Below are positions 1,144 through 57,700 of a DNA stretch of 64,000 nucleotides, piece after piece (position 1 is the stretch's first letter; each line of letters begins with the position of its first letter). Position numbers and translations under genes: made by a program. The notes under the pieces were generated by a model, which ran no database searches, had not been told where the DNA came from, and saw only the letters and a program-made list of their open reading frames with translations. The DNA is from Paragorgia papillata (lineage: Eukaryota; Cnidaria; Anthozoa; Scleralcyonacea; Coralliidae). The stretch spans positions 302,501 through 366,500 of the forward strand of contig JAWNZC010000367.1 in NCBI GenBank assembly GCA_035771165.1, read 5' to 3'.

Positions 1144-1192
1144 GTCGACAACTGTCTATTTAGCGGATAGACGATACGACATGTTACCCGCC
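1144..1192 (+). CDS. DIS3L: DIS3L interrupted exon, 5' piece
   Basis: After a good acceptor (cttcttttag) one base completes a codon from the previous exon; the next residues read [16 protein letters not shown], the conserved RNB-domain block. Coding sequence stops at the element junction: the next element codons are AGT AGA TAG. Joining to 8530-8573 gives 93 nt, entering and leaving in phase 2. Confidence 0.9.
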
Positions 1193-4100
1193 AGTAGATA
1201 GGCCACAGGCATAGCACACTTTTTTCCGGAGCTCTTACCCCTAGTTTTTAGTTACCAGGTTGACCGTGTGAGCCCTGTGCGCGCGCATGTGAACCGGAAA
1301 TACGTTTTTGAATAGAGAAACCGGTTTTTGACAAGTATGATTGTTGTCAGACAATGGTTTAAATGAATAAAGAAGCTGCTTAATGAAACAAACGTGCAAT
1401 GCTTACGGTCACTGTTTATTTAGTCAGTGTGTTTGTGAACTGGTTGAAGAAACGTGGTAAAGAGAAGCATGGCACATCTGTTTGAGCAAATGTATGTCGA
1501 CGAAGTTGATTTTGAGGACATTCTAACTTTTGAGCAGATTATTGATCTCGTTTCTACCGAGTTTGTCCATAGACAGATTGAAGAGTTGGAGGAGCTAGTG
1601 ACATGTGCCAAGGAGATGGAGTTGGAGATGGAGGAGGTGGATGGTAATCAATGGACTACCGTGAGAGAGCCTTGTGAAATTTCTGATGAAGAGCATCGTT
1701 GGATGGCCTACACAAACCAAGCTATTTCAATGATTGACCGTGAAAATATTTGGAGGGCAATCGCGGAGACCTGCAGGATTTTATCGTTTCCTAGTCCTTC
1801 CACTTTATGCAGACAGTATTTTGACAGTTTATTTAATCTGAGCTGGTTTATTTGGACTAAGATGTACGCTGAGACCTCAAGAACAATGAACATTAATAGC
1901 TTAATGGACTATATAATGTGTACATGCAAACTTAAGTGCCATTCAACTGTGTAATTAAAATTGTGTGAATAAAAAAGTTTTTTAAAAACCTAATGCATTG
2001 GTCTACTTTCTTCATACTATACATTGTTGCTTGTGGCGACAGTGGTGTACGGTTTAGAGAAAATTTCCAAATGGAGGCTTGTTATAGCAGATCACAAAAT
2101 GACAGAACCAAGAGAAATAAAAATCATAACAGACAGAAAATGTTTAGAATCGGTGTTACGTTTGGTCGTAACAATTTAAATTTAGAGGGTCGTCTGCAAA
2201 TGGGATATAATAGAATGGTTATCGAAATTGACACTGGAGAATCCGTAATATTGTTTCATTCCAAATATGGCGCAACAAATTAATAAAAGAACCAGTCTGG
2301 CTATACACTGTGAACGACGTTTGAAAATGCGCCATTCCGACAAAAGTGAAGGTAGATAAATAGAACTTGAAGCAAAGATCATTGAAGCGTTTATGAATAA
2401 GTTACAAGGGAAAATTAATTACCTGTCAAATGACTTTTGTTTTCTGTACAATTTCATTTGTTTTGCTTTTATATATTTATATTGTACACTGTATCATGCG
2501 AACGTGTTAATTAGGCACAATTTATGTTCGCATTTGCTCCTTGAACTCGTATTTAAGTTATCATTGTCTTTCTAGGGGGTCCCGAAAACTCGATGTTTCC
2601 TAAGGGGCCAGTCAACGTATGCCGTAAGGGATAACTTAATGACAAAGATCGTACTAATAATTAAACTGTTTAATTAAAAGTTAAATGACTAAATAACACA
2701 ACTTGTGTTTTAAAATGGATTTATTTTGTAGATTAACTTATGAACGCACAAACAATTATTACTCTGTCCCGGTGTTCATGTTACCGGCCATAACGGTTTT
2801 GTATCCCAACATTCGTTGTAGAAGGAATTTTCTTTGATTTATAGCCGCATTTATACTTTCATCTTCATCGTAGCCTTCTTCATCCATTAAACGTTTCATT
2901 GTTTTCATAATTTTCTTGTGGATACTGTCACGTTGAAGCTCCTTTACTAATCGAATGTACTTTTTGTATGATTTTGCCATTTCTCTGGTATATTCTGGAA
3001 CCAACATAGCGTAGGCATGTTTCATAGCTTCGTCAACAGTAATGTTGTTTTATTGCATTGTTATTTCGACCAAAGCATTTCGTTTAGGATCCACCTTTTC
3101 AAAAACTTCATTTAATATATATTCCCAGAGTGTGTCGTTTTCTTCATCTTCCTCGCATTTGGACTCTTCAGAATGTTCGCTAGTACTTTCCTCATCGATG
3201 GACAAGTTGTCTTCCGTCAGCGATATGCTGTTTTCTTCTTCCGTCGACAGTATGATGTTTTTTCCGTCTGTACAAGAGTCGTCTTCTCCATCTTCCTCCG
3301 ACTCATTGCTATTTTCTTCATCGCTGTATGCATCCGTACAAGAGTCGTCTTCTCCATCTTCTTCCGACTCATTGCTATTTTCTTCATCGCTGTATGCATC
3401 CGTACTTTCATTCTCCATCACTACATCGTTATGCTTATCTGGATCGTATTCTCCCTCTGAAATATCTGAAATGTCACCTTGTTCCACCAGAAGCGGATAA
3501 TCAAAACAGATGGCTTGATGTGGTCTTACGTTATACGCAGACGAAAAACGCTTCATACACTGGTTACACTGATAACAATTACCCATACTATCACCAGCAA
3601 AAATTGAGGAGAAATGAAAAAACTAGCAGAGAGAAATGACTATATATTACAATATATTGCCTAGTTAACATGTGGTACAGAAACGTTGCCGTGAATCGTG
3701 ATGCATTGTTTGATTGGACATGCACACTCTCGTAAATGTTTTTTAACAGGCAATATAGATCTTCGAACAAAATCGATATGCGAATTTTGCTCATTATGTT
3801 CTCATTTTGCTCATCATGCTTGCGCATTTTGCTCAGTCACATTCGCATTATGCTCATTGCGTGCGCATTTTGCTCATTCATATTCTCATTATGCTCATCA
3901 TGCGTGCGCATTTTGCTGATTCACATTTGCATTATAATCATCATGCTTTCGCATTTTGCTCATTCACATTCGCATTATGCTCATTGCGTGCGCATTTTGC
4001 TCATTCACATTCGCATTATGCTCATTCACATTCGCATTATGCTCTTTGAGTGCGCATTGTGCTCATTCACATTCGCATTGTGCTCATAACACTCGCGTAC

Positions 4101-7100
4101 TTTACTCATCACGCGCGCATTGTGCTCATTTACATTTTGCTCATAACACTCGCGTACTTGTTGAAACAACCAAATCGCTTGGTTTAAAAATTGATGAGAC
4201 ACTGACCTGGAGTGAGCAAGTTGAACATATTACAAAAAAGGTTACTACTGGTCTGAGCATACTAAGGAGAATAAGAAATTTTGTTGACCTCAATACACTT
4301 CTTACAGTGTACCGGTCCATTATTCAACCATATTTTGAATATTGTTCTCCTGTGTGGGCTGCTCTTGGTAAAACACTTTCCCTAAAACTCCAACGATTGC
4401 AAAACAGAGCTGCTCGCATCATTACAAGAGATACTTATGACATCTCTTCTGTTGAATGCTTAAATAAATTAAAACTAATCAATTTAGAAACAAGGAGGGA
4501 TCAACAACTCTCCATATTAATGTATAAAGTGAGTCATAATCAGGTACCAAGCGAATTAGGAAAATTATTTAAGAGAACAAATCAACAACATGACTACAAT
4601 ACTAGGCAGGCTGAACATGATTTCGTTCCACCTAAACCCAGTACAAATTATCTGAAAAGGACGTTTGGTTACAGAGGCTCAGTGGTTTGGAATAATTTAT
4701 CCGATGAAATCAAGAGTTCATCGTCACTTACAATTTTTAAAAGTAGATTAAGAAGTTATTGTGTAAATAATAGTATATAGTTGTTCTTTTCTATTTATTC
4801 CTTTGTTGTTTTGTATTTATTGTATTATATATAGTAGACTTGTACATACTTTTATATTTGTAACTACTGATGTGAACACACGGCCTTTTGGAAGATCACC
4901 ATGCATGTAATTAGGTGAAATAGTACCGTGTTTTTAAATAAAGTTGAAGTAAGTAAGTAAGTAAGTAAGTGCTTTGCTCATTACGTGCGCATTGTGCTCA
5001 TTCGCATTATGCTCATTGAGTGCGCATTGTGCTCATTCGCATTATGCTCATTGAGTGCGCATTGTGCTTATTTACATTCGCATTATCCTCATTCACATTC
5101 GCATTTTGCTCATAACACTCGCGTATTTTGCTCATTACGTGCGCATTGTGCTCATTTACAGTCGCATTGTGCTCATTCACAACATTCGCATTATGCTCAT
5201 TGAGTGCGCATTGTGCTAATTTACAGTCGCATTGTGCTCATTTACATTCGCATTGTCGGTTCCCAGGGACTTAAGGGACATAAGGTTTGTCTATCTATCT
5301 ATCTGAGTCCGGGGGGGGGGGACTTATGGGACGTAAGGGAACACAATGCGACTGTAAATGAGCACAATGCGAATGTAAATGAGCACAATGCGCATTCAAT
5401 GACCATAATGCGAATGTGAATGAGCACAATGCGACTGTAAATGAGCACAATGCGCACGTAATGAGCAAAATACGCGAGTGTTATGAGCAAAATGCGAATG
5501 TGAATGAGGATAATGCGAATGTAAATAAGCACAATGCGCACTCAATGAGCATAATGCGAATGAGCACAATGCACACTCAATGAGCATAATGCGAATGAGC
5601 ACAATGCGCACGTAATGAGCAAAGTACGCGAGTGTTATGAGCAAAATGTAAATGAGCACAATGTGCGCGTGATGAGTAAAGTACGCGAGTGTTATGAGCA
5701 CAATGCGAATGTGAATGAGCACAATGCGCACTCAAAGAGCATAATGCGAATGTGAATGAGCATAATGCGAATGTGAATGAGCAAAATGCGCACGCAATGA
5801 GCATAATGCGAATGTGAATGAGCAAAATGCGAAAGCATGATGATTATAATGCAAATGTGAATCAGCAAAATGCGCACGCATGATGAGCATAATGCGAATA
5901 TGAATGAGCAAAATGCGCACGCAATGAGCATAATGCGAATGTGACTGAGCAAAATGCGCAAGCATGATGAGCAAAATGAGAACATAATGAGCAAAATTCG
6001 CATATCGATTTTGTTCGAAGATCTATATTGCCTGTTAAAAAAAATTTACGAGAGTGTGCATGTCCAATCAAACAATGCATCACGATTCACGGCAACGTTT
6101 CTGTACCACATGTTAACTAGGCAATATATTGTAATATATAGTCATTTCTCTCTGCTAGTTTTTTCATTTCTCCTCAATTTTTGCTGGTGATAGTATGGGT
6201 AATTGTTATCAGTGTAACCAGTGTATGAAGCGTTTTTCGTCTGCGTATAACGTAAGACCACATCAAGCCATCTGTTTTGATTATCCGCTTCTGGTGGAAC
6301 AAGGTGACATTTCAGATATTTCAGAGGGAGAATACGATCCAGATAAGCATAACGATGTAGTGATGGAGAATGAAAGTACGGATGCATACAGCGATGAAGA
6401 AAATAGCAATGAGTCGGAGGAAGATGGAGAAGACGACTCTTGTACAGACGGAAAAAACATCATACTGTCGACGGAAGAAGAAAACAGCATATCGCCGACG
6501 GAAGACAACTTGTCCATCGATGAGGAAAGTACTAGCGAACATTCTGAAGAGTCCGCATGCGAGGAAGATGAAGAAAACGACACACTCTGGGAATATATAT
6601 TAAATGAAGTTTTTGAAAAGGTGGATCCTAAACGAAATGCTTTGGTCGAAATAACAATGCAAGAAAACAACATTACTGTTGACGAAGCTATGAAACATGC
6701 CTACGCTATGTTGGTTCCAGAATATACCAGAGAAATGGCAAAAACATACAAAAAGTACATTCGATTAGTAAAGGAGCTTCAACGTGACAGTATCCACAAG
6801 AAAATTATGAAAACAATGAAACGTTTAATGGATGAAGAAGGCTACGATGAAGATGAAAGTATAAATGCGGCTATAAATCAAAGAAAATTCCTTCTACAAC
6901 GAATGTTGGGATACAAAACCGTTATGGCCGGTAACATGAACACCGGGACAGAGTAATAATTGTTTGTGCGTTCATAAGTTAATCTACAAAATAAATCCAT
7001 TTTAAAACACAAGTTGTGTTATTTAGTCATTTAACTTTTAATTAAACAGTTTAATTATTAGTACGATCTTTGTCATTAAGTTATCCCTTACGGCATACGT

Positions 7101-10100
7101 TGACTGGCCCCTTAGGAAACATCGAGTTTTCGGGACCCCCTAGAAAGACAATGATAACTTAAATACGAGTTCAAGGAGCAAATGCGAACATAAATTGTGC
7201 CTAATTAACACGTTCGCATGATACAGTGTACAATATAAATATATAAAAGCAAAACAAATGAAATTGTACAGAAAACAAAAGTCATTTGACAGGTAATTAA
7301 TTTTCCCTTGTAACTTATTCATAAACGTTTCAATGATCTTTGCTTCAAGTTCTATTTATCTACCTTCACTTTTGTCGGAATGGCGCATTTTTCAAACGTC
7401 GTTCACAGTGTATAGCCAGACTGGTTCTTTTATTAATTTGTTGCGCCATATTTGGAATGAAACAATATTACGGATTCTCCAGTGTCAATTTCGATAACCA
7501 TTCTATTATATCCCATTTGCAGACGACCCTCTAAATTTAAATTGTTACGACCAAACGTAACACCGATTCTAAACATTTTCTGTCTGTTATGATTTTTATT
7601 TCTCTTGGTTCTGTCATTTTGTGATCTGCTATAACAAGCCTCCATTTGGAAATTTTCTCTAAACCGTACACCACTGTCGCCACAAGCAACAATGTATAGT
7701 ATGAAGAAAGTAGACCAATGCATTAGGTTTTTAAAAAACTTTTTTATTCACACAATTTTAATTACACAGTTGAATGGCACTTAAGTTTGCATGTACACAT
7801 TATATAGTCCATTAAGCTATTAATGTTCATTGTTCTTGAGGTCTCAGCGTACATCTTAGACCAAATAAACCAGCTCAGATTAAATAAACTGTCAAAATAC
7901 TGTCTGCATAAAGTGGAAGGACTAGGAAACGATAAAATCCTGCAGGTCTCCGCGATTGCCCTCCAAATATTTTCACGGTCAATCATTGAAATAGCTTGGT
8001 TTGTGTAGGCCATCCAACGATGCTCTTCATCAGAAATTTCACAAGACTCTCTCACGGTAGTCCATTGATTACCATCCACCTCCTCCATCTCCAACTCCAT
8101 CTCCTTGGCACATGTCACTAGCTCCTCCAACTCTTCAATCTGTCTATGGACAAACTCGGTAGAAACGAGATCAATAATCTGCTCAAAAGTTAGAATGTCC
8201 TCAAAATCAACTTCGTCGACATACATTTGCTCAAACAGATGTGCCATGCTTCTCTTTACCACGTTTCTTCAACCAGTTCACAAACACACTGACTAAATAA
8301 ACAGTGACCGTAAGCATTGCACGTTTGTTTCATTAAGCAGCTTCTTTATTCATTTAAACCATTGTCTGACAACAATCATACTTGTCAAAAACCGGTTACT
8401 CTATTCAAAAACGTATTTCCGGTTCACATGCACGCGCACAGGGCTCACACGGTCAACCTGGTAACTAAAAACTAGGGGTAAGAGCTCCGGAAAAAAGTGT
8501 GCTATGCCTGTGGCCTATCTACTCCCGCCATACTTATCGCCGACCTTTGCTCACTTCTTAGCGGAGTTGACAGGTTTGTACGTACGTTTGTTATATATAA
8601 GCTTTAATCTGTTGTTAGATATCGTTTTGTGCCACTGGCCCACTGCATGCCATCGGTCAGGCACTACTATAAAACTAAATAAAAATTTTATTTTTATCTA
8701 CAGGGCAAGAATTTCAGGACATTTTGCTTTTCGCCGCCTCCACCTTTTGTTTTGTTTTCCCTTTGTGTAGTTTAGTTTAGTTTAGTTTAATTTAGCTTTG
8801 CTTTGCCTTGGCTTGGCTTGGCTTGGCTTGGCGTGGCGTGGCTTAGCTGGACTGGACTGGATGGACTGGACTGGATCGAATTGGATTGAATCGGGTTGGG
8901 TTGGGTTGGGTTGGGTTGGACTGGGTTGGACTGGACTGGACTGCATCGGATTGGGTTGTGTTGGGTTGGACTGGGTTGGACTAGACTGGACTGGACTGGA
9001 CTGGACTGGATCGCATTGGGTTGGGTTGGGTTGGACTGGGTTGGACTGGGCTGGATTGGGTTGGGTTGGACTGGGTTGGACTGGACTGGATCGGGTTGGA
9101 CTGGACTGGATCGAATTGGATTAGATCGGGTTGGGTTGGGTTGCACTGGGTTGCACTGGACTGGACTGCGTTGCGTTGCGTTGCGCGGCACAGCACAGCA
9201 CAGTAGTCAATAGTGTACTTAGATTTATTTAACCTTTATTTTATTTTATTCCCATTCTTATTTTCATTTCCAACTATGAATTGTCTTATTCTTCATTGAA
9301 CCACTGATTGAACATCATATTACAGAGAGTTCAAGATGTTTAAACTATATTTACACTTACAAATTACATGCAGTAATATAAAGTTCAGCAATTGTTTTTA
9401 AGTAATTGAATTTGAAGTAACGTATTTAGGTTTTCACGTGATTTTATTACAACGTTATCCAGGTATGCTGTGAGTGTCTTATGGATTCTGGATAGCGAGA
9501 ACTACGAAGTGAAGGATGTTTGGTATGGAAAGACCATTATTCGTTCGCGTTATAAGCTGTTTTACGAGGTAAGCAATATCTCCTTTTCACCGATGGGAAA
9601 TAACTTCTCAAGTAAAAATGAAGATAATTATTAATTTTATTGTTGTTTTAGATTGCCCAAGCCATTGCGGAGGGGAAAACGAGCAATAGTGAATTAACTG
9701 AAAATGTTCCTGAATTACAGGACTGTACGACTGAAAGCGAACTTAATACAAGGTATGTCGGTTATTGCTTGAACGTTTAGCTCTCATAACTCTTTAAAGG
9801 TCAACTCAAGGCAAATTACATTTTTCGCTTTATATATGTATTAAAGCACGTAGGATCCGAATATGATGAAAACAAATTGAATTGAAATTTTTGGGATGTT
9901 GAATCGACGAATTTTGAAGTATTTTTATAAAAAGCTGTGTTATATAAAGAGTCTGGCACTAGCAAGTGTGTGACGTAAACAGAGGAACGATTATACAATC
10001 CATTAAAGTAAACACACTCAAAAAGTGTCAAATACTTTAATACATGTGCGGTTGGAAACTGCACAAGTTATATTCATCATAAATCAGCTTTTTTTATGAT

Positions 10101-20183: not shown

Positions 20184-23100
20184 TTTTTCGTTTTTCTCTT
20201 TCTTTGTGCGGTTGTGTCATCTAGGAATCTCAAAATGCTCAAAGAGACTCAGTGCAGTTGTTTCAAGCTCTTTATTTCCGCGATCTCGACGAGAATGACG
20301 AACGTCGCTTTGCTGAGGCTGTTGTATTCCAAACACGTGAAAATGCCGTCCTCGTGTCTATTGAAAGGTAAAATATGTGAAACTTGTCGAATAATCCCCC
20401 TGTTGTTAAGGTGCTATTGTAAATAACCTTTAAGAGAAAATAATGAGACGGGGGGAAATCAGGTCGTTGCCGGAGTCACGTGATCGAATTTCACAAACGT
20501 TATTGCGCTCGGGATGTTGGTAGGGTACAGCATTTTCATTCATTACAAAATCCCTTATACTTCCTACGAACGAACGGACGAACGAACGAACGAACGAACG
20601 AACGAACGAACGAACGAACGAACGAACGAACGAACGAACGAACGAACGAACTAACTAACTAACTAACTAACGAACGAACCATCAAACGAACGAACCAACC
20701 AACAAACAAACCAACCAACCATCGACGAACTGTCGAACTAAAGAACGAAGCAACGAACTAACGAATGATTTGGTCAGAATTCAGTTGATCGCAGATGTTA
20801 TGTAATGCTAGACTTTCTGGACTTGTACTAAGCAAGTTGCGCCCAGTAGCAAAGTTCATTGATTCTCTCTCCGAAACAGAGAACGTAGGAGTCTAACGTT
20901 ACGAGCGAAGGCCCTTCGTCAGAGAGAAACGTTAGACGAAGGGTCTTCGCTTCTTCCTACGTTCTCTGTTTCGGCAGTATATCTAACCTTACTGTATTTC
21001 GATTGTTGTTTCAACACTGCCTACGCAGCACGGTACTTTAATCTAAAGGACAATCTGGCATGGGTCCTATAGGTTACGCAAGTGGCGAAATATCTCAGCT
21101 TCTTATATTGCAACTTCAACCATCAGTGCGGAATATGTCCAAACACACTCTTTTTTAGTTTTTTGCTTTCATTACAGATATGGACTAACACACTCTATTT
21201 TTGTTTTTTGCTTTCATTACAGATATGGACAAAGATGGCGTGGAATACGTTCCAGGCAAGTCTTTCGAAATATTTCGTTATGTTTTCTTAGGTCCTGTTT
21301 ATGTATGAAGCGGATTGACAGTCGAATCGGATCGATAAACGCCAGTTAAATCAATTCCACAGATGTTTACATGGAAAATCCGATCTGTTTGGAACACTGT
21401 TTTCTGTGCTTTCCTCAATGTCCGCCATGTTCCACGACACGCACCAACTTCACTCATGCTTATCAAGTCATTTTCAAGTCAAATCGTGTTTATATGCCCT
21501 GGTTAGATACATTCAAGCCGATTCTTGCCTGAAGCTCAAGTGAATCAAGTCAATCCACTCAAATTCGTGGATTGACTTCAGCCATCCGTTTCGATCAGAT
21601 TGAAAACTTTCAATCTTCTTCGTTGTAAACACAACAAGGAGAAACAACATGCGAGATTTGACTTGAACACTCAATCCGCTTCATGTAAACATGGCCTTTT
21701 TTAAAGAAGTTATTAATTTTACAGTATAACTATAGAGTACCTCCACTGCATGATATCTGTATAAACTGGATAGGGCTGCATTCCCTAAGGGAATTCTATG
21801 GCAAGCAGTCAAAAACTTTCCACCACTGGCCACCATCTTACGTAGTGGAACACATCAGGCATTGCTGCCTTTGAATTTGTACAAAGATGGCGTGTCAACT
21901 CAATTCTGTAGTTGACTTGCAAAAGCAATCTTGATGTCAGCGTGGTCAGATTAATCGGGTGCACGGCACAGAATATAAAGTAATTCTATACCAAACTCGG
22001 AAAAGTTTTCACTGCATGTCCACAACAAATATAGCCGAGAAATGTAAGTAACAGATTTTGCATTTTGTCATTTTCTTTTCCTTGCTTCGTTGTTGAGATA
22101 TTTCAGGTTGTTTGGTATGCAAAGCCAGCAATGAAAAACTGCAAAAGATGTTACTTTGTAATTTTCAGTGTTCTTTCAAATGAGACAGACTTAATTTTCG
22201 TTTCATAGACACTTTAAAGGGCAACTATACGTTTCTAGTTTATTCTATTTTCCGTTTAAAGTCGGAAAAGTTCAATCTAAAACCGAAGAAATAATTAAAA
22301 CTAGTCACTCTGTTCCACTTTTATGAACTGTCTAAGTTTGAGTTTTTGCTCCTTTTGCTGAACTCGTGTGAACGACGACCGCGTCGAAATAAAGACTGGT
22401 ATTAGTAACTTGTGATGTCATACCAGTAACAAACAACAAGGTGATTGGTGGGTTTTACCGGTGTGACGTCAAAGACAATGGAGTACCCATTCTCCTAGAA
22501 ACGCGGTTATGCTTCAAGAGGACCTAAGAAGGCTTCGCTGATAAATTATTTGCTTTACCTCGAAATTCATATTTTTCTTTACTTTTGTTAAGTTAGATGA
22601 TAACCCTTTCAGAAGAAAATATAACTTCGAAAGGTTTAGTTAACCTTTAAGGCATTTAAAATTACTACAAAGATACAATTTAAGAAATTTAAATAATAGA
22701 CACTTCCCGAATTTGCTTCGATGCCTATGAAACAATGGCACGAACTCGGGGTTAGCCACGAAATCGTAATGCATTCACTATTATCCTTCGTATCCAAACT
22801 CGATTTCAAACCATTGTTCGCGCCCATTGAAGCAAATTCGGGAAGTGTCTATTGTAAATAAATAAATAAATTTGTGCAAAGCTCCTGTACAGTTACCCTG
22901 CAAGTCAGAGCCCCTTTCAGACCTACGCAGGCTTCGGGGGAAAGTGGGCTCTGCCAACAAACTCGATATCTGCCCCAAGTTTGGGGCGAGTCAATCAGGT
23001 TTTGAACTGGTCAAACGAGTTCTAGTTTTTGAGCACCCACAAGCAGGAAAATAGCAAGTAACGCGTTAGAGCCTGGACCCAAAATAGTATCTTGGCAACC

Positions 23101-26834: not shown

Positions 26835-29800
26835 CAACAACAACAAACTAATACCACCATCGACGACAAACTACTAACACCACCAATGACAAACTACTAC
26901 TACCACCACCAATGACAAACTACTACCACCACCACCAACGACAAACTACTACCACCAACAACAACAACAACGGACAAACTACTACCACCAACAACGACAA
27001 ACTATTACTACCACCACCAACACCAACACCAACACCAACAACGACAAACTACTACTTGGCACCACCACCAATGACAAACTACTACCACCACCAACGACAA
27101 ACTATACCAATGACAAAATAACAGACTACCCACCGACCAACAACGGCCATCTATCATTTATCAATTAACAACCACCAACTACCATCAAGCAACGACCAAC
27201 AAGCAAACAACAACTAACAACTATATCAATTGAGATTGCTATTGGTTTTTTGTTTTTGTTTAAAACTTCTAGACTAACTCTATTGCAGGTACGGATTGGT
27301 GTATCTCATTCACGAACACATGGCGACTCAGTTAAGCTTGAGCTAGCTTCTTGCTATCCTTATAAGTTGTCAAAATCATGTTCCATGAGCGAGGAGGAAA
27401 TCAAGCTTCAAAAGAAACGGCTTATTGAGGTTTGTTGTGCAAATCCACTTTTGTAGCATATATTATTTATGTACGTATATACGTTAGACCGGGATTAAAC
27501 GTCGCACTTTACATATGCCGTACTTAATATCTATTTTGTGGAACCCTAGAGAAGATTAGGTTTTTGATTGATACCATGTTGGTGACTATATACACTATTT
27601 AAACTTAATAAAGATTATCGTACTGTACTGCACGGCGCTACCCTGCGCCGCGTTGTACTGGGCTACAATGTGTTGAGCTGCGCTATCTTGCGCTGTGCTG
27701 TGATGTGCTACGCTGGGCGGGGCTGGGCTGGACTGAGCTGAGCTAGGTGTTGCTTTGTGTCGTGTCGTGTTGTGTTGTGTTGTGTTGTGTTGTGTTGTGT
27801 TGTGTTGTGTTGTGTTGTGTTGTGTTGTGTTGTGTTGTGTTGTGTTGTGTTGTGTTGTGTTGTGTTGTGTTGTGTCGTGTTGTCCTGTGGTGTGGTGTGT
27901 TGTGTTGCTGTTGTGTTGTGTTGCTGTTGTGTTGTGTTGCTGTTGTGTTGTGTTGCTGTTGTGTTGTGTTGCTGTTGTGTTGTGTTGCTGTTGTGTTGTG
28001 TTGCTGGTGTGTTGCTGGTGTATTGCTGGTGTGGTGTTGTGCTGTGTTGTGCTGTGTTGTGCTGTGTTGTGCTGTGTTGTGCTGTGTTGTGCTGTGTTGT
28101 GCTGTGTTGTGCTGTGTTGTGCTGTGTTGTGCTGTGCTGTGTTGTGTTGTGTTGTGTTGCGTTGCGTTGCGTTGCGTTGCGTTGTGTTTTGTTATTGTTG
28201 TTGTGCTGTTTTGCATGGGCTGTGTTGTGTTGATTCCATTCCGAAGTACAGTGCAGCGCACCGCAGTGCATTGCATTGCAGTACAGTACAGTACAGTACA
28301 GTACAGTACAGTACAGTACAGTACAGTACAGTACAGTACAGTACAGTACAGTACAGTACAGTACAGTACAGTACAGTACAGTACAGTACAGTACAGTACA
28401 GTACAGTACTAATTTAAAGTCTAGTGTAGTATTTTATGGAAAACTCCAGTGGCGGACACTAGGGGGGGGGGGGGGGGGGGCGAGGGGGGGAGATCCCCCC
28501 CAATAATTTTAGCTGAAGCTTTCATTTTGAAAAGTGGAAGCACAAGAAAGTTTTCATTTGATATACATGCATATATAACGTATCTTCTGACTCTTCATAA
28601 AAGTATAAAACTATAGTATTTAAAGTTGTTGATCATACCTAAAGTGGTGGTTCATTAATCGTTACTTATATCTAATTTACTACGGACTATATCTATATCT
28701 ATAGTTATGAATTTTCAAGCGTTCTCTGGTTTAAATATTTATTACTGCGGATTCAGGTTGATTAATGCGAATAATTTATCGCGTTCGTTGCAACAGTTGC
28801 GTGATGACGTTTCTAGGCAGGTTGATTGACGTTGCTACGGTGTCGACGTGTCGTTTGTACAATAACAACCTAATTATCACCATATAAGGCTATAAGCTAA
28901 TAGAATTGTTCAACTATAAACGGAATAAATTAATATCAAAATTCCGTTACACATTTCATTTCAAAATTCAATGCCTATAAACATGTTTCTCGTACAAATA
29001 AAAGTAGAATTTCTACTTTTATTTGTACGAGAATAGAATATGTTAACGAAACAAAAGCGTGCGCAGAACGGAGTCATAGACGAACTATGCATAGACTGAT
29101 CAAATTCTGATATTTATTTATTTTAAAAGAAATATGTGGATTTCACTCGCTTAGCGAATAAATTTTACATTGTCATTGGCGTGTTAATTAAACCACCTTG
29201 CAATTCCATTCACAAATGTAGATAATCATCTAGAATATTTTCTCTGAAATGTTGTTTTTTTATGCTTAGCATGTGATTTATAACAAAATGCACCATTAAA
29301 ATAGTGTTTTGAAAACCTAAAATTTTTTACAAACTGTGTTCTCAGAATGCTGCAAATGCCATTTCAGAGATCCAAATTTTAAAAATTTTCCGGGCGCATG
29401 TCCCCGCACCCCCCTAGAAGGCTCGTGCCTTCGGCACTCGCCCCCCGAATATTTCGTCAAGTGTCCGCCACTGGAAAACTGTAAGACATCTTACACCAAC
29501 AACTTATAGATTTTTATAATTTAGACTTGTTTTTTTTATGAAATCAGGTAAAAACGTAACGTCGTACCCAGTGTCTTATCTACGCTTGCCCCCGCCCCCA
29601 CGGTGGCGAGCGGAGATAAGACCCTGGGTACGAGGTTGGTTAAAACGTAGTACTCAAGTAGTGTTTATATCTTTACAAAACCTTTATTGAGTAGTTGTAT
29701 CTTATGCTCATTATCATTTCTTTAGGACGTAAAAGAGTACAACGAAGGAAACAGCGCGAAGTCTGAGGACGAGAACGATCTAAGTGACTTTCGTCAATTG

Positions 29801-33700: not shown

Positions 33701-36700
33701 TTAAACAACATTGCTTGGCCAGCGTGAACAACGTTTGTGCTGATCAGCATGAACAACATTGTGTTGGCCAATATGAACAACATTGTGCTGGCTACAGTAG
33801 CATGAACAACATTGTGTTAGCCACAGTAGCATGAACAATATTGGGTTGGCTAACACGAATAACATTCTAAGACCTTGCGTTACATTGTGAGTTATTGCAT
33901 TACATTGTCAGACGCATTGTGAGACCTTACGTTACATTGTGAGACCTTACGTTACATTGTGAGACCTTATGTTACATTGTGAGACCTTACGTTACATTGT
34001 GAGACCTTACGTTACATTGTCAGATGCATTGTGAGACCTTATGTTACATTGTCAGATGCATTGTGAGATCTTACGTTACATTGTCAGATGCATTGCGAGA
34101 CCTTACGTTACATTGTCAGATGCATTGTGAGACCTTGCATTACATTGTGAGACCTTATCTTACATTGTGAGACCTTATCTTACATTGTCAGATGCATTGT
34201 GAGACCTTGCATTACATTGTGAGTCCTTACGTTACAATTGTCAGACGCATTGTGAGACCTTGTGTTACATTGTGAGACCTTACGTTACATTGTGAGACCT
34301 TACATTACATTGTGAGTCGTTACGTTACATTGTCAGATGCATTGTGAGTCCTTGCATTACATTGTGAGACCTTATCTTACATTGTGAGACCTTATCTTAC
34401 ATTGTCAGATGCATTGTGAGACCTTGCATTACATTGTGAGTCCTTACGTTACAATTGTCAGACGCATTGTGAGACCTTGTGTTACATTGTGAGACCTTAC
34501 GTTACATTGTGAGACCTTACATTACATTGTGAGTCCTTACGTTACATTGTGATACCTTATGTTACATTGTGAGTCCTTACGTTACATTATCAGACGCATT
34601 GTGAAACCTTGCATTACATTGTGAGTCCTCACGTTACATTGTCAGATGCATTGTGAGACCTTGCATTACATTGTCAGTCCTTACGTTACATTGTCAGACC
34701 TTACGTTACATTGTGAGACCTTACATTACATTGTGAGTCCTTACGTTACATTGTCAGATGCATTGTGAAACCTTGCATTACATTGTGAGTCCTCACGTTA
34801 CATTGTCAAATGCATTGTGAGACCTTGTGTTACATTGTGAGACCTTACGTTACATTGTGAGACCTTACATTACATTGTGAGTCCTTACATTACATTGTGA
34901 GTCCTTACGTTACATTGTGATACCTTATGTTACATTGTGAGTCCTTACGTTACATTATCAGACGCATTGTGAAACCTTGCATTACATTGTGAGTCCTCAT
35001 GTTACATTGTCAGATGCATTGTGAGACCTTGTGTTACATTGTCAGATGCATTGTGAGATCTTACGTTACATTGTCAGATGCATTGCGAGACCTTACGTTA
35101 CATTGTCAGCTGCATTGTGAGACCTTGCGTTACATTGTGAGACCTTATCTTACATTGTCAGATGCATTGTGAGACCTTGCATTACATTGTGAGTCCTTAC
35201 GTTACAATTGTCAGACGCATTGTGAGACCTTGTGTTACATTGTGAGACCTTACGTTACATTGTAAGACCTTACATTACATTGTGAGACCTTACGTTACAT
35301 TGTGACACTTATGTTACATTGTGATTCCTTACGTTACATTATCAGACGCATTGTGAAACCTTGCATTACATTGTGAGTCCTCACGTTACATTGTCAGATG
35401 CATTGTGAGACCTTGTGTTACATTGTGAGACCTTACGTTACATTGTGAGACCTTACATTACATTGTGAGTCCTTACGTTACATTGTCAGATGCATTGCGA
35501 GTCCCTACGTTACATTGTGAGACCTTACGTTACATTATGAGGCTTTACATTACATTGTGAGTCCTTACGTTACATTGTGATACCTTATGTTACATTGTGA
35601 GTCCTTACGTTACATTATCAGACGCATTGTGAAACCTTGCATTACATTGTGAGTCCTCACGTTACATTGTCAGATGCATTGTGAGACCTTGCGTTACATT
35701 GTCAGTCCTTACGTTAAATTGTCAGACCTTACGTTACATTGTGAGACCTTACATTACATTGTGAGTCCTTACGTTACATTGTCAGATGCATTGTGAAACC
35801 TTGCATTACATTGTGAGTCCTCACGTTACATTGTCAGATGCATTGTGAGACCTTGTGTTACATTGTGAGACCTTACGTTACATTGTGAGACCTTACATTA
35901 CATTGTGAGTCCTTACGTTACATTGTCAGATGCATTGCGAGTCCCTACGTTACATTGTGAGACCTTACGTTACATTGTGAGTCCTTACGTTACATTATGA
36001 GGCCTTACATTAAATTGTGAGTCCTTACGTTACATTGTGATACCTTATGTTACATTGTGAGACCTTACGTTACATTATGAGACCTTACATTACATTGTGA
36101 GTCCTTACGTTACATTATCAGACGAATTGTGAAACCTTGGATTACATTGTGAGTCCTCATGTTACATTGTCAGATGCATTGTGAGACCTTGTGTTACATT
36201 GTCAGATGCATTGTGAGATCTTACGTTACATTGTCAGATGCATTGCGAGACCTTACGTTACATTGTCAGCTGCATTGTGAGACCTTGCGTTACATTGTGA
36301 GACCTTATCTTACATTGTCAGATGCATTGTGAGACCTTGCATTACATTGTGAGTCCTTACGTTACAATTGTCAGACGCATTGTGAGACCTTGTGTTACAT
36401 TGTGAGACCTTACGTTACATTGTAAGACCTTACATTACATTGTGAGACCTTACGTTACATTGTGACACTTATGTTACATTGTGATTCCTTACGTTACATT
36501 ATCAGACGCATTGTGAAACCTTGCATTACATTGTGAGTCCTCACGTTACATTGTCAGATGCATTGTGAGACCTTGCGTTACATTGTCAGACCTTACGTTA
36601 CATTGTGAGACCTTACATTACATTTCAGAGTCCTTACGTTACATTGTCAGATGCATTGTGAAACCTTGCATTACATTGTGAGTCCTCACGTTACATTGTC

Positions 36701-38204
36701 AGATGCATTGTGAGACCTTACGTTACATTGTGAGACCTTGCATTACATTGTGAGTCCTCACGTTACAATTGTCAGACGCATTGTGATACCTTGTGTTACA
36801 TTGTGAGTCCTTACGTTACATTGTCAGATGCATTGCGAGACCTTGCGTTACATTGTGAGTCCTTACGTTACATTGTCAGATGCATTGTGATACCTTGCGT
36901 TACATTGTGAGTCCTTACGTTACATTGTCAGATGCATTGTGAGACCTTGCATTACATTGTGAGACCTGATGTTACATTGTCGAACGCATTGTGAGACCTT
37001 GCATTACATTGTGAGTCCTTGCGTTACATTGTCAGATGCATTGTGAGACCTTGCGTTACATTGTCAGACCTTACGTTACATTGTGAGACCTTACATTACA
37101 TTTCAGAGTCCTTACGTTACATTGTCAGATGCATTGTGAAACCTTGCATTACATTGTGAGTCCTCACGTTACATTGTCAGATGCATTGTGAGACCTTACG
37201 TTACATTGTGAGACCTTGCATTACATTGTGAGTCCTCACGTTACAATTGTCAGACGCATTGTGATACCTTGTGTTACATTGTGAGTCCTTACGTTACATT
37301 GTCAGATGCATTGCGAGACCTTGCGTTACATTGTGAGTCCTTACGTTACATTGTCAGATGCATTGTGATACCTTGCGTTACATTGTGAGTCCTTACGTTA
37401 CATTGTCAGATGCATTGTGAGACCTTGCATTACATTGTGAGACCTGATGTTACATTGTCGAACGCATTGTGAGACCTTGCATTACATTGTGAGTCCTTGC
37501 GTTACATTGTCAGATGCATTGTGATACCTTGCGTTACATCGTGAGACCTTGCGTTACATTGTCAGATGCATTGTGATACCTTGCGTTACATTGTGAGACC
37601 TTACATTACATTGTCAGACGCATTGTGAGTACTTGCGTTACATTGTCAGACCTTACGTTGCATTGTGAGACCTTACATTACATTGTGAGTCCTTACGTTA
37701 CATTGTCAGATGCATTGTGAGTCCTTACGTTACATTGTGATACCTTACGTTACATTGTGAGACCTTACGTTACATTGTGATACCTTACCTTACATTGTGA
37801 GACCTTACGTTATATTGTGAGACCTTACGTTACATTGTGAGACCTTACGTTACATTATGAGACCTTACATTACATTGTGAGTCCTTACGTTACTTTGTCA
37901 GATGCATTGTGAGTCCTTACGTTACATTGTGATACCTTACGTTACATTGTGAGTCCTTACGTAATATTGTGAGACCTTACGTTACATTGTGATACCTTAC
38001 GTTACATTGTGAGACCTTACGTTATATTGTGAGACCTTACGTTACATTGTGAGTCCTTACATTACATTGTGAGACCTTACGTTACATTACCAGACGCATT
38101 GTGAGACCTTACGTTACATTACCAGACGCATTGTGAGACCTTACGTTACATTATCAGACACATTGTGAGACCTTACGTTACATTGTCAAATGTATTGTGA
38201 GACC
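33700..38204. repeat. 4.5-kb minisatellite, 20-bp and 32-bp units, higher-order structure
   Basis: Starts with a decayed GTTGGC.A..ATGAACAACATT array (33700-33870), then a 20-bp unit TTACATTGTGAGACCTTACG and a 32-bp unit made by inserting CAGATGCATTGT. Two higher-order duplications are visible: 1160 bp offset (34991 and 36151 onward, including GTGACACTTATG at both) and 478 bp offset (36621 and 37099, marked by CATTTCAGAG; 36981 and 37459, marked by CGAACGCATT). Confidence 0.95.
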
Positions 38205-38325
<121 letters not shown>

Positions 38326-38339
38326 AAGATACTTTATTT

Positions 38340-38610
38340 CAGGCCCTTACGTTACCTTGTGAGATCTTACATTACATTGTCAGATCTTACGTTACATTGT
38401 GAGACCCTACGTTACATTGTGAGACCTTACGTTACATTGTCAGATCTTACGTTATATTGTGAGACCTTACGTTGCATTGTGAGAACTTGCGTTACATTGT
38501 GAGACCTTGCTTTACGTTGTGAAACCTTACAGTACATTGTGAGTCCTTTTGGTACATTGTCAGATCTTACTGTACGTTACATTGTGAGTCCTTATGTTAC
38601 ATTGTGAGAC
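38340..38610. repeat. Distal, decayed part of the minisatellite
   Basis: Same GTTACATTGTGAGACC words with more variants. Confidence 0.9.
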
Positions 38611-39111
38611 CAAACATTTGGCGAAAAGTATGTTGCAAATGAGTGTAATACTTGTATATTCTTGTAAAGAAACTAATAAATTTACATGCATGACATTACA
38701 GGTGATAGTTTATTGACGCTGTCAAAGGATGTTACCCATTATATTGTTCCAGATTGTCAGGTAGTGTTGCATTGATTCATTTATTCATTCATTCAATCAT
38801 TCGTTCGTTTGTTTTTTATTCGTTTCATCGAGATTTCATCATGTTTCATCGAGATTTTCTCAATGTCGCGTAGATTTCAAACGAGTAAACTCCACTCTCT
38901 ATATCTGAAACGCTATATCTTCAGTTATTCACAGGCCTCAAAGTCAAGTTAAGATTTGGTATCTATTATATCGGTTTCGGTCACTGACCTATATATAACT
39001 GGACTGCGTGCTCCTATTACCTTTGAGATAGGAAAAGTGTCCCCCGAATAGTTTTCAAAATGGCAGCATTTATGGGTCTTTTGGTAATGGTGAAATGTCG
39101 CCGTCCACGTT

Positions 39112-54700: not shown

Positions 54701-57700
54701 TACGTTTCCCGGTTATTCTATTTTCCGTTATAGTCGGAAAAGTTCAATCTAAGACCGAAGAAATAATTGAAACCAGTCACTCGGTTCCACTTTTATGAAT
54801 TGTCTAAGTTTGAGTTTTTGCTCGTTTTGCTGAACTCGTGTGAACGACGACCGCGGCGAAATAAAGACTGGTACTAGTACCTGTGATGTCATACCGGTAA
54901 CAAACAACAAGCTGATTGGTGGGTTTTACCGGTATGACGTCAAAGACAATGGAGTATCCATTCTCCTAGAAACGCGGTCGTGCTTCAAGAAGACTTAAGA
55001 AGTCTTCGCTGAGAAATTCTTTGCTTTACCGCGAAATTCATATTTTTCTTTAATTTTGCTAAGTTAGATGATAACCCTTTCAGAAGAAAATATAACTTCA
55101 AAAGGTATAGTTGACCTTTAAGCCTGCAGGACTGGGTATAGTTTAATGCATCTAATTTAAGATGGCTGATCGTCGGGAAGAAACTGTAACTTACTGTTAG
55201 AATTAAACGATAGAATTAAACTCACAGAAGCTTTTATAGTTCTTCAGGTCAATTATCAGGTTTTCAACCATTGTTGGAGACCAAGACCATTTTTTTCGCT
55301 TCGTATTTGCTGCTCTATCAATTGTTACACATTCTGCCGCCATTTTGTTTCGCAGTTTTGCCTTGGGTAGGCGAGTCAACTTTATCTCGCCCCCCTATGG
55401 TAACCCTACCTCGCAAAGAGGGTGACCCTACCCCCACGGTGACCCTACTACCCGAGACAAGTATGAAATTCTCCATGTAAACGCTCGCTGTCGAGACTAA
55501 GTAAAATGAACACAAAGTTGGCTCCCCCAGGGTAGCTCGGGGGGCAGGATGACCCTTCTACCAGGGACAACGTTTGTCCATGTAAACGGCCCCTTAGTCT
55601 TGTATTAATTGTCTTTCGATTAACGGATACTTAAAAATAATAAAGCAGAGTCAATCAAGATATGGTCTGGAAATCCGGAAAACTTCAAAGCGCCTATAAT
55701 GAGCTGTGATTTTATGTTGAGACGGTCCTCACCGTGCAAAAACATTTTGTTTTTTGCTCATTAATCTTTAAATAGCACGGTTGAGCAATTGAACCAAACG
55801 CTGCTATTGGATAAGTGCTTCATTATACCAATAAACGTGAACAAAAAGATAGAACAAAGACTTTAAAATTTGCTGAGTTTCCAGACCATCTATCAATAGA
55901 CTATGAATAAAGTGACTAAATCTCTTCAGTTCTTCAATTCTGAATGCAATCGAATTTAGATTAATTGATAATTTGCAGTAGGTTTATTAGAAGGTAATTC
56001 AATCTATTCCGTTTCAAACACTTACTCCATCATTCAGAAGAACTTCGTTTTTGGAACAACGACCCTAAATAAGAAAAGTATTATAAATATAGTATCATAC
56101 CTGTCTGATCAATAAAATATACTTGTTTAGAATACTCATTAATAATTCATGAAGGAAACACTATAGTAATGTTACTGTCTTAATTTGTATGCTGTATATC
56201 GGATACAACATCGTCCTAGTTTGCAAAAACCTCTTCCTCGATTTACTCAGTTAAGTGGCTTGAAGATGCAGCCGCAGCCGAACTGTATGGGATTTACTAA
56301 CGTTTGTCTTTGGCTCGCCTTGTAAATCCCATACAGTTTAGCCGCTCATAGCGTATCTACTGCTTAATAGATTAAAAACAGTTAAGTTTGTTTCAAATAT
56401 ACACTTAAAAAAGTACGTAAACTAAAAAGAAAATATGGACAATTATTGACTTTGAGAACTAGTAGCATTTATGCCATAAAGTTAACCTAACCTTTTTTGG
56501 TACTCCACTTCCATCTTTTAACTTGTACCATACAATATCTCCATTATCTGCAGTAACCTGGTACTCCATGCATTTGCTCCAGACTCTTTTCGGAAGAGTA
56601 GATCTCACCCAAAACCATGTATACACATTCTTTGTAACGGTTCCTCCAACTTTAGCTTGGCAATCATTACCACAGTAATTTCCCGTACCACCCAATGGAC
56701 CATAACAAGCACAACACTAAAAATGTTAATGCTTAAAATAACTAAAATTGAGAAGAAAATTATAGGTCTACTATACAAGTCAATTCTTAGTTATTGAAAA
56801 CACTTACCTTATTGTCGCAACCGACGAACGCTGTTGAATCATGGTGAATCCCAGAAATATTTCCAGTAACACTGTAACTGTTCCAAGAAAAACAAGTTTT
56901 AACTTCATTGTCAGTTTTTGTCTTTGTTTCATGTTATAATATGATTTAGTCGGTTCTTTTTAATGTACTGCAGTTTATTGAACATTTTTATTTAATCATG
57001 TTATAAACCTTCCAACCCTATGCAAACTCGCAATAACAATAAAGCCATTCTTTTTGTTTAACTACTAATTTAAATATATTATATACGTTAAACTTGTCTC
57101 CACAAGCAATTTTCATATTGAATTCTTAAGAAAACCTCCTTGATCATGCTTGTTATCAATAGGTTTCGCCCTCAGGATTCTATATCGCAAGTAAACTTCG
57201 GGTTAGGTGCTTAACATACACTTATTGTTGCTAGGTTACCTGAAGGCTCCTGAAGTGTCAGTCTGATACTTAATGTTAGGGAGATCAAGAAAAGCAAAAC
57301 CATTCGAACATGGTTTTTGGAAGCAGGAGTTCATCATAGACTGTAAAATATAATTTTTAACACAATTAAAATATTTATAAAACAATTGAAAAAATATCGA
57401 TCACACAAATTAAACAAGAGGTACAAATATCCTAGAATGAAAGAAATGTATAATTATATTAGAATAGTTCAGGATAACAAAATATTGTCATGCCAATCAA
57501 ATTTGTTTGCAGTTTATAATAATAAAGAACACACTGATAAAAAAGCTTACCCATCCAAACTTTAATGATGGCTGATGGGCCAAGCCAAATTTTGAACATT
57601 GGAAATTTGTAGTGACAATACTTTCTGTCTGCAAATCTTTTACATATGCAATGTTTCCAATCCCTGCTGAACTTTGGTCACATCCTCCTTTGTCAATTAC

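What the first reader, a model, noticed from the sequence alone, without database searches (positions are those of the whole stretch)
1144..8573. Polinton-type insertion inside a coding exon of the exosome nuclease gene DIS3L
The exon is split after GCC at 1192 and resumes at 8530. The element has AG...CT termini and a perfect CCCGCC duplication. Deleting the element and one duplication gives a 93-nt exon with matching phases and the conserved order [14 protein letters not shown]. With the element, translation ends two codons in (TAG), removing the RNB signature and S1 part. A clean large insertion in a conserved gene is either a very young allele, or the gene is dispensable or duplicated in this animal.
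Basis: partly seen in the sequence, partly recalled or inferred. Interest (0 to 1): 0.92.

Follow-up and report, generated by a model that had tools for sequence, protein, structure and literature searches.

The report
Palindromic Polinton satellite splits DIS3L exon
A mobile DNA element that is almost its own mirror image, a trimmed relative of the virus-like Polintons, has jumped into a coding exon of an RNA-decay gene, in a genome where the same mirror-image form has copied itself to other places.

Summary
The insertion is real. Window 1193-8523 (7,331 bp), with AGT...ACT ends and a perfect CCCGCC duplication, splits a 93-nt RNB-domain exon of DIS3L. It is not an ordinary Polinton. It has no polymerase, integrase or capsid gene and is a near-perfect palindrome: two ~3.2-kb arms, about 0.6% apart, around a unique ~85-bp centre. 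The same genome holds 14.5-16.8 kb Polintons and 7.5-8.2 kb satellites with the same ends; the satellites' TIRs are only ~147 bp. The window arm is the integrase end of the satellite, head to head. Its centre matches 18 places (at least 87% over at least 106 nt); arms lie inverted on both sides in 10 of 12 fetched centre loci. So the palindrome is a transposing lineage, not a one-off rearrangement. Of five palindromes compared, the DIS3L copy has the most similar arms (99.5% against 96-98%), so it is probably the youngest. No empty site was found. A diverged second DIS3L could not be sought because that search did not complete. Snap-back origin is inferred.

The parts
1144..1192 (+). left half of a DIS3L coding exon (RNB domain), including the first TSD copy
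1187..1192 (.). target-site duplication CCCGCC, left copy
1193..8523 (.). palindromic non-autonomous Polinton relative, 7,331 bp
1193..5256 (+). left arm (with nested insertion and a 66-bp expansion)
1454..1954 (+). ORF1, left copy, 166 aa, all-helical by prediction; also found near the integrase end of long copies
1993..2283 (+). ORF2, left copy, 96 aa
2759..3586 (-). ORF3, left copy, interrupted by a stop near 3052
4157..4971 (+). 815-bp insertion in the left arm only; looks like a LINE 3' end with TAAG-type tail (by recall; no Pfam match)
5257..5341 (.). unique ~85-bp centre of the palindrome, shared with other palindromic copies
5342..8523 (-). right arm, about 0.6% different from the left
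6195..6956 (+). ORF3, right copy, 253 aa, acidic, with a sub-threshold C2H2 finger; not found in the ten stretches of long copies
7433..7723 (-). ORF2, right copy, 96 aa
7762..8262 (-). ORF1, right copy, 166 aa
8524..8529 (.). target-site duplication CCCGCC, right copy
8530..8573 (+). right half of the DIS3L exon; codon 8536-8538 reads Ile where readable relatives have Ser

Best explanation
The insert is one copy of a palindromic satellite lineage of a Polinton family resident in this genome. Shown: the genome has 14.5-16.8 kb Polintons; 7.5-8.2 kb satellites that share both ends with them; and a third class in which the integrase end of the satellite (~3.2 kb) is present twice, head to head, around one shared centre. 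Shown for the complete copies: integration with a target duplication, of 6 bp where perfect, as in Polintons. Inferred: helper Polintons supply PolB and integrase in trans; the palindrome first arose when a protein-primed, displaced strand was copied back on itself (snap-back), and it persisted because a linear molecule with the terminal origin and integrase site at both ends can replicate and integrate; folding of displaced strands into a hairpin with the ~85-nt centre as loop tends to keep the two arms alike. Inferred: this copy makes a DIS3L null allele, as no plausible splice was found that removes it in frame.
For: Palindrome. Two ends with TSD: window CCCGCC, C3 CATATA, C455 (a form without the centre) TGGCTG and C103 5 of 6 bp. 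Satellites non-palindromic with TIRs of 146-150 bp: 6 of 6. The arm is present at one end of 6 of 6 satellites (two lack ~170 nt of it), but only its first ~0.9-1.05 kb in the five long copies. C11 has PolB 1.5e-20 and 4.2e-11 in two ORFs, rve 5.7e-12 and chromo 1.2e-10. The centre is absent from L010-L015 but matches 18 places at 87-100% over at least 106 nt, among 48 rows from 40 scored of 47 candidates; inverted arms lie on both sides, over 200 nt each, in 10 of 12 fetched loci. Window and C103 arms group at 98/95. Arms more alike within than between copies in window (99.5) and C3 (96.5, 201 nt), and in 1,117 nt of C338 (97.1). Splice removal: 3 frame-keeping combinations (donors 1151-1260, acceptors 8001-8560), best score -14.7, against +6.7 (acceptor) and +1.7 (donor) for the exon's own sites.
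Against: No extrachromosomal DNA, RNA or read data were available. Snap-back origin cannot be told from head-to-head joining of two molecules, or from end-joining as favoured for AAV snapback genomes (passages of PMC8235507). C103 and C455 do not show within-copy likeness: the left arm of each is closer to the window's right arm (C103 97.2 against 96.5 within; C455 97.1 against 96.0 within), and a 513-nt piece of C338 is slightly closer to C3 (98.1) than to its own other arm (97.9). The C455 ends carry two different terminal variants. L044 has arm on one side of the centre only, L045 only 111 nt on one side, L042 only 212 nt on one side. Only one end was seen for C302 and C338, and no second end of C441 and C128. 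The grouping of palindromic ends is weak, with C128 and C441 outside. Helper action is not shown.
Confidence: 0.75

Rival explanations
1. An ordinary long-TIR deletion derivative: a parent Polinton had 3.2-kb TIRs and lost its middle.
For: The outcome (two long TIRs with little between) would look alike; TIRs up to 1,447 bp are reported for vertebrate Mavericks (passages of PMC8097293).
Against: The six satellites that carry the arm have it at one end only, with TIRs of 146-150 bp; in the one I annotated, C258, the other end bears the 138-aa ORF found at the PolB-side end of C11.
Confidence: 0.12
2. Assembly artefact: a palindromic read or mis-join produced the mirror arms.
For: Palindromic chimaeric reads are a known failure of some long-read libraries (recalled). 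No reads were available to check.
Against: Arms differ by 19 substitutions outside the centre, an 815-bp insertion and a 66-bp expansion. Two different host flanks with a perfect TSD meet the ends. The same centre with inverted arms recurs at other loci, one of them complete with its own TSD.
Confidence: 0.03
3. The DIS3L locus here is a pseudogene or a dispensable copy; the insertion is tolerated because a second DIS3L or another RNB nuclease does the work.
For: No empty allele in the assembly. Ser to Ile at a position that is Ser in 80 of 80 readable relatives, 8 of 88 not readable. The insert is old enough for one arm to hold an 815-bp insertion.
Against: Nine downstream exon hits are open over the matched stretch and 40-73% identical to the recalled human query. 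The joined 93-nt exon finds only its own two halves in the 618-Mb assembly, so no close second copy by DNA.
Confidence: 0.3
4. The insert is a segregating null allele; the assembled haplotype carries it and the other haplotype is intact but absent from the assembly.
For: Most similar arms of five palindromes compared. Downstream exon hits open. A 0.6% arm difference is within allele ages met in large outbred populations (recalled; the host is not known).
Against: No empty haplotype in the assembly.
Confidence: 0.6

Closest known systems
Polinton/Maverick elements
   Same: 6-bp TSD, AGT...ACT ends, first ~0.9-1.05 kb shared with five long copies in this genome, one of which (C11) carries PolB, integrase and chromodomain by Pfam; AGT/ACT end motif and 6-bp TSD as in PMC8097293 (passages).
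   Different: No PolB, integrase or capsid gene; 7.3 kb; palindromic over the whole length instead of TIRs of 46-1,447 bp (vertebrate range in PMC8097293).
Palindrome-containing Polinton-1 insertion upstream of Chinook salmon gh1 (PMC2584663)
   Same: A ~20-kb insertion with a 10-kb palindromic sequence that is part of a Polinton-1 (passages only).
   Different: One locus in the passages seen, not described as a lineage; here a shared centre marks several copies and the target is a coding exon.
Snap-back defective genomes of adenovirus (recalled) and AAV (PMC8235507, abstract and passages)
   Same: Inverted duplication of one genome end, symmetric or asymmetric.
   Different: Those are products of infection; this form is integrated and has spread in a genome. 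AAV is not protein-primed (recalled).
Mu killer of maize (PMC3440606, abstract in search listing)
   Same: Inverted duplication of transposon sequence beside a transcribed gene, proposed there to give a ~4-kb hairpin RNA.
   Different: No RNA or silencing data here; the insert lies inside an exon and belongs to a mobile lineage.

Membership tests
Polinton/Maverick | 6-bp target-site duplication | tested here: met
   CCCGCC; also perfect in 10 of the 13 other elements read at both ends (C103 5 of 6 bp; the two duplicate C72 loci none) and in C3
Polinton/Maverick | AG/AGT 5' end with CT/ACT 3' end | tested here: met
   motif in PMC8097293
Polinton/Maverick | terminal inverted repeats | tested here: met
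   whole element
Polinton/Maverick | protein-primed PolB gene | tested here: not met
   no ORF of that size in the element; DNA_pol_B_2 in relative C11
Polinton/Maverick | RVE-type integrase gene | tested here: not met
   ORF1, ORF2, ORF3 and the LINE-like frame do not match; rve 5.7e-12 in C11
Polinton/Maverick | capsid genes, ATPase, protease | tested here: not met
   none among the element's ORFs by Pfam. In C11 ORFs of 442, 265 and 214 aa sit where capsid and ATPase genes are expected (recalled); Pfam gives nothing for the first and only sub-threshold matches for the others
non-autonomous Polinton derivative | same ends and adjoining end sequence as long copies in the same genome | tested here: met
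   91.6-96.1% over the first ~0.9-1.05 kb in five long copies; only C11 was shown to carry PolB and integrase
non-autonomous Polinton derivative | mobilised in trans by the autonomous copies | not testable with these tools
   only indirect: terminal variants shared across classes
snap-back defective genome | inverted duplication of a single genome end around a loop | tested here: met
   arm = integrase end of satellite; ~85-bp centre
snap-back defective genome | made by strand copy-back during replication | not testable with these tools
   no replication data
hairpin-RNA silencer (Mu killer kind) | read-through transcript and small RNAs | not testable with these tools
   no RNA data

The most novel reading that the evidence does not exclude
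Palindromic Polintons are a stable life form of their own: self-complementary satellites whose displaced strands fold into a hairpin around a shared loop and so need no second-strand priming. They have spread through this genome for long enough that their centres now differ by more than 10%. Sitting in transcribed genes such as DIS3L they would yield long hairpin RNA against the helper Polintons, acting as a natural silencing trap.
Probability: 0.2. Interest if true: 0.85.

Novelty: new variant of a known kind. Interest (0 to 1): 0.6.

Why it matters
Polintons are thought to replicate by protein priming, but direct evidence in animals is scarce (recalled). A lineage of integrated palindromes made from one Polinton end is a footprint that such replication could leave, and it suggests that an element with little more than the terminal signals can move. 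The DIS3L copy gives a testable case of a Polinton satellite interrupting a conserved exosome nuclease.

Tried and rejected
Assembly artefact: rejected because the arms differ, the flanks differ, and the centre recurs at other loci. Long-TIR deletion form: disfavoured by the 146-150 bp TIRs of 6 of 6 satellites. Ginger elements: their ends follow TGTNR (passages of PMC2836005), unlike AGT here. Element spliced out as an intron: with donors scoring at least 2 no combination kept the frame; with all donors at 1151-1260 and acceptors at 8001-8560, 3 did, all with very poor scores from recalled consensus tables. Exon skipping would keep the frame (93 nt) but drop 31 codons of the RNB domain (inference).

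Led nowhere: ORF1, ORF2 and ORF3 against Pfam, nothing above cut-off, and PHROGs, best E 0.076; ORF1 and ORF3 relatives in viral contigs, none confirmed in 3 scans; ORF3 in phage records, no match; fold search of the ORF1 model (mean pLDDT 76.7) against viral structures, 0 of 63 matches at E <= 0.001; DIS3L exons in the 10 kb left of the window, no hit in the 5 kb readable. Selection: pooled pN/pS 0.42 for ORF3 (10 rows, C-terminal 165 codons) and 0.53 for ORF1 (9 rows) from few changes; pairs with the window range from 0.26 to 1.60, and the two window arms differ by non-synonymous changes only (4 and 2); not strong evidence. I chose those rows; other copies seen were left out. Literature: no paper holds any of six phrases such as non-autonomous or palindromic Polinton/Maverick; 44 papers hold both 'polinton' and 'palindrom', 25 were listed, and I looked at passages in two, one of them irrelevant.
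Full report
What was claimed.

The insertion. Joining 1144-1192 to 8530-8573 gives a 93-nt exon reading [30 protein letters not shown]; the element is 1193-8523, 7,331 bp, with CCCGCC at 1187-1192 and 8524-8529, and translation into it stops after two codons. With the next exon the peptide matches Pfam RNB at 4.7e-18. Relatives read straight through this site: 88 proteins match the joined peptide (88 of 91 candidates, short ones only by the tool's length rule), one named DIS3-like exonuclease 1, and 76 of the 88 hold ADRRYDMLP or AERRYDMLP.

The element is a palindrome. Inverted arms 1193-2327/7389-8523, 2324-3339/6376-7391 and 3333-4159/5622-6448 run almost end to end. Aligned arm to arm, 3,222 columns hold 51 differences, of which 32 fall in the central ~85 bp (5257-5341), leaving 19 outside it, about 0.6%; there are also indels of 1 and 3 nt. 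The left arm alone has an 815-bp insertion (4157-4971, a LINE 3' end by its look and TAAG tail, recalled) and an extra 66-bp repeat. Each arm has ORFs of 166, 96 and about 253 aa; the left copy of the last has a stop. None matches Pfam above cut-off.

Three size classes in one genome. The window lies in a 618-Mb, 473-contig assembly of an unnamed organism; that it is an animal is my inference from the gene and its relatives. The 112-nt terminus matched 40 places (40 of 229 candidates scored, so a lower bound), many in facing pairs. Pairs of 14.5-16.8 kb (C473, C234, C11, C339) and one of 12.1 kb (C124) share only the first ~0.9-1.05 kb of the window arm, at one end, at 91.6-96.1%. I annotated only C11: PolB in two ORFs (1.5e-20, 4.2e-11), rve integrase (5.7e-12) and chromodomain (1.2e-10), with an ORF2-like frame and the 166-aa ORF1 beyond the integrase. 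Capsid names for its 442- and 265-aa ORFs would be recall, not Pfam. Six copies of 7.5-8.2 kb (L010-L015) carry the 3.2-kb arm at one end, at 94-96% over the first ~2.15 kb and 85-87% in the tandem-repeat part, two of them (C72a, C280) lacking ~170 nt of it. Their TIRs are 146-150 bp and they are not palindromic, 6 of 6. The one I annotated, C258, has a 187-aa ORF and, at its other end, the 138-aa ORF of the PolB-side end of C11. ORF3 was found in satellites and palindromes and in none of the ten stretches L016-L025 of long copies. So the window element is the satellite's integrase end twice, head to head.

The palindrome is a lineage. Its ~85-bp centre is not in L010-L015 but is in C103 at 97.5% and twice in C128 at 94%. 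A genome search with 121 nt around it gave 48 rows (40 of 47 candidates scored); 18 rows match at 87-100% over at least 106 nt, the window included. Of 12 loci fetched around centre hits (L034-L045), 10 have arm sequence inverted on both sides with over 200 nt each; L044 has it on one side only and L045 has 111 nt on one side. C3 is complete, 3552272-3558292, with TSD CATATA; for C302 and C338 only one end was seen in the stretches read. C103 has a 5-of-6-bp duplication; C455 is a 2.4-kb form with asymmetric arms, no centre and TSD TGGCTG. C441 folds back but has no second end in the stretch read, and C128 has two centres and no second end recognised. In a tree of 20 integrase ends the window and C103 arms group at 98/95 and the C455 arms at 98/95; their union (81/92) and the deeper forks are weak, with C128 and C441 outside.

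Age. Arms within a copy: window 99.5% (2,148 columns), C338 97.1 and 97.9%, C3 96.5% (201 nt only), C103 96.5%, C455 96.0%. If arms are alike at insertion, the window copy is the youngest of these five. Arms are closest to each other in window and C3 and in the larger piece of C338; a 513-nt piece of C338 is slightly closer to C3, and the left arms of C103 and C455 are closer to the window, so homogenisation is only partly borne out. Terminal variants recur across classes: GGCCACA and TGTCACA in long, satellite and palindromic copies, GAGTGCA in long C339 and palindrome C3, as expected if they replicate together (inference).

State of DIS3L. Searched with the joined exon, the genome gives only its own two halves, both in C367. 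No plausible in-frame splice removing the element was found. The downstream exon hits are open over the matched stretches. Codon 8536-8538 is Ile where 80 of the 80 relatives in which the position could be read have Ser; 8 of 88 could not be read. That may mark relaxed constraint after the insertion. The RNB-family search that would show a diverged paralogue did not complete (last try), and the 5 kb left of the window were withheld.

Mechanism. Shown: palindromic structure, shared centre, integration with target duplications, kinship with Polintons in the same genome. Inferred: copy-back of a displaced strand during protein-primed replication made the first palindrome; helper enzymes move it; hairpin folding with the centre as loop tends to keep arms alike. 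Snap-back AAV genomes, symmetric and asymmetric, are a described parallel, though their authors favour end-joining (passages of PMC8235507); adenovirus parallels are recalled. The vertebrate Maverick survey gives 6-bp TSDs, AGT/ACT end motifs and TIRs of 46-1,447 bp (passages of PMC8097293), so whole-length arms are outside that range. The only precedent I found is a ~20-kb salmon insertion with a 10-kb palindrome that is part of a Polinton-1 (passages of PMC2584663). A transcript through the insert could form a long hairpin, as proposed for Mu killer (abstract of PMC3440606 in the listing); nothing here tests that.

Verdict. The finding is a new variant of a known kind: a transposing palindromic satellite of Polintons, whose copy with the most similar arms among those compared breaks DIS3L.

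Noticed in passing
8536-8538: Ile codon in the DIS3L exon at a position that is Ser in 80 of 80 readable relatives.
   Followed up: partly
4157-4971: LINE-like 3' fragment nested in the left arm only; its copies elsewhere were not dated because the search did not complete.
   Followed up: partly
L031 1764-1884 and 4326-4446: The C128 palindrome holds the centre twice, about 2.56 kb apart, and no second end was recognised.
   Followed up: partly
L013 and L014: Two C72 satellites with the same flanking bases and no TSD: probably a duplicated locus.
   Followed up: no
L010 4420-4983: 187-aa ORF in a satellite, without Pfam match.
   Followed up: no
33863-38611: Large minisatellite of a 20-nt unit CATTGTGAGACCTTACGTTA (also read as 52 and 72 nt); its wording resembles the edge of the palindrome centre.
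   Followed up: no
27747-28232: Array of a 5-nt unit GTGTT just past the last DIS3L exon hit (27289-27378).
   Followed up: no
15220, 32973, 41359, 63114: Dispersed repeat around TTTTATTCTGGCTAACGCCAGACGATTTTA, several copies and an inverted one near 60852.
   Followed up: no
22249-22651 and 54721-55122: Pair of ~400-nt repeats, 92-93% alike, 32.5 kb apart.
   Followed up: no
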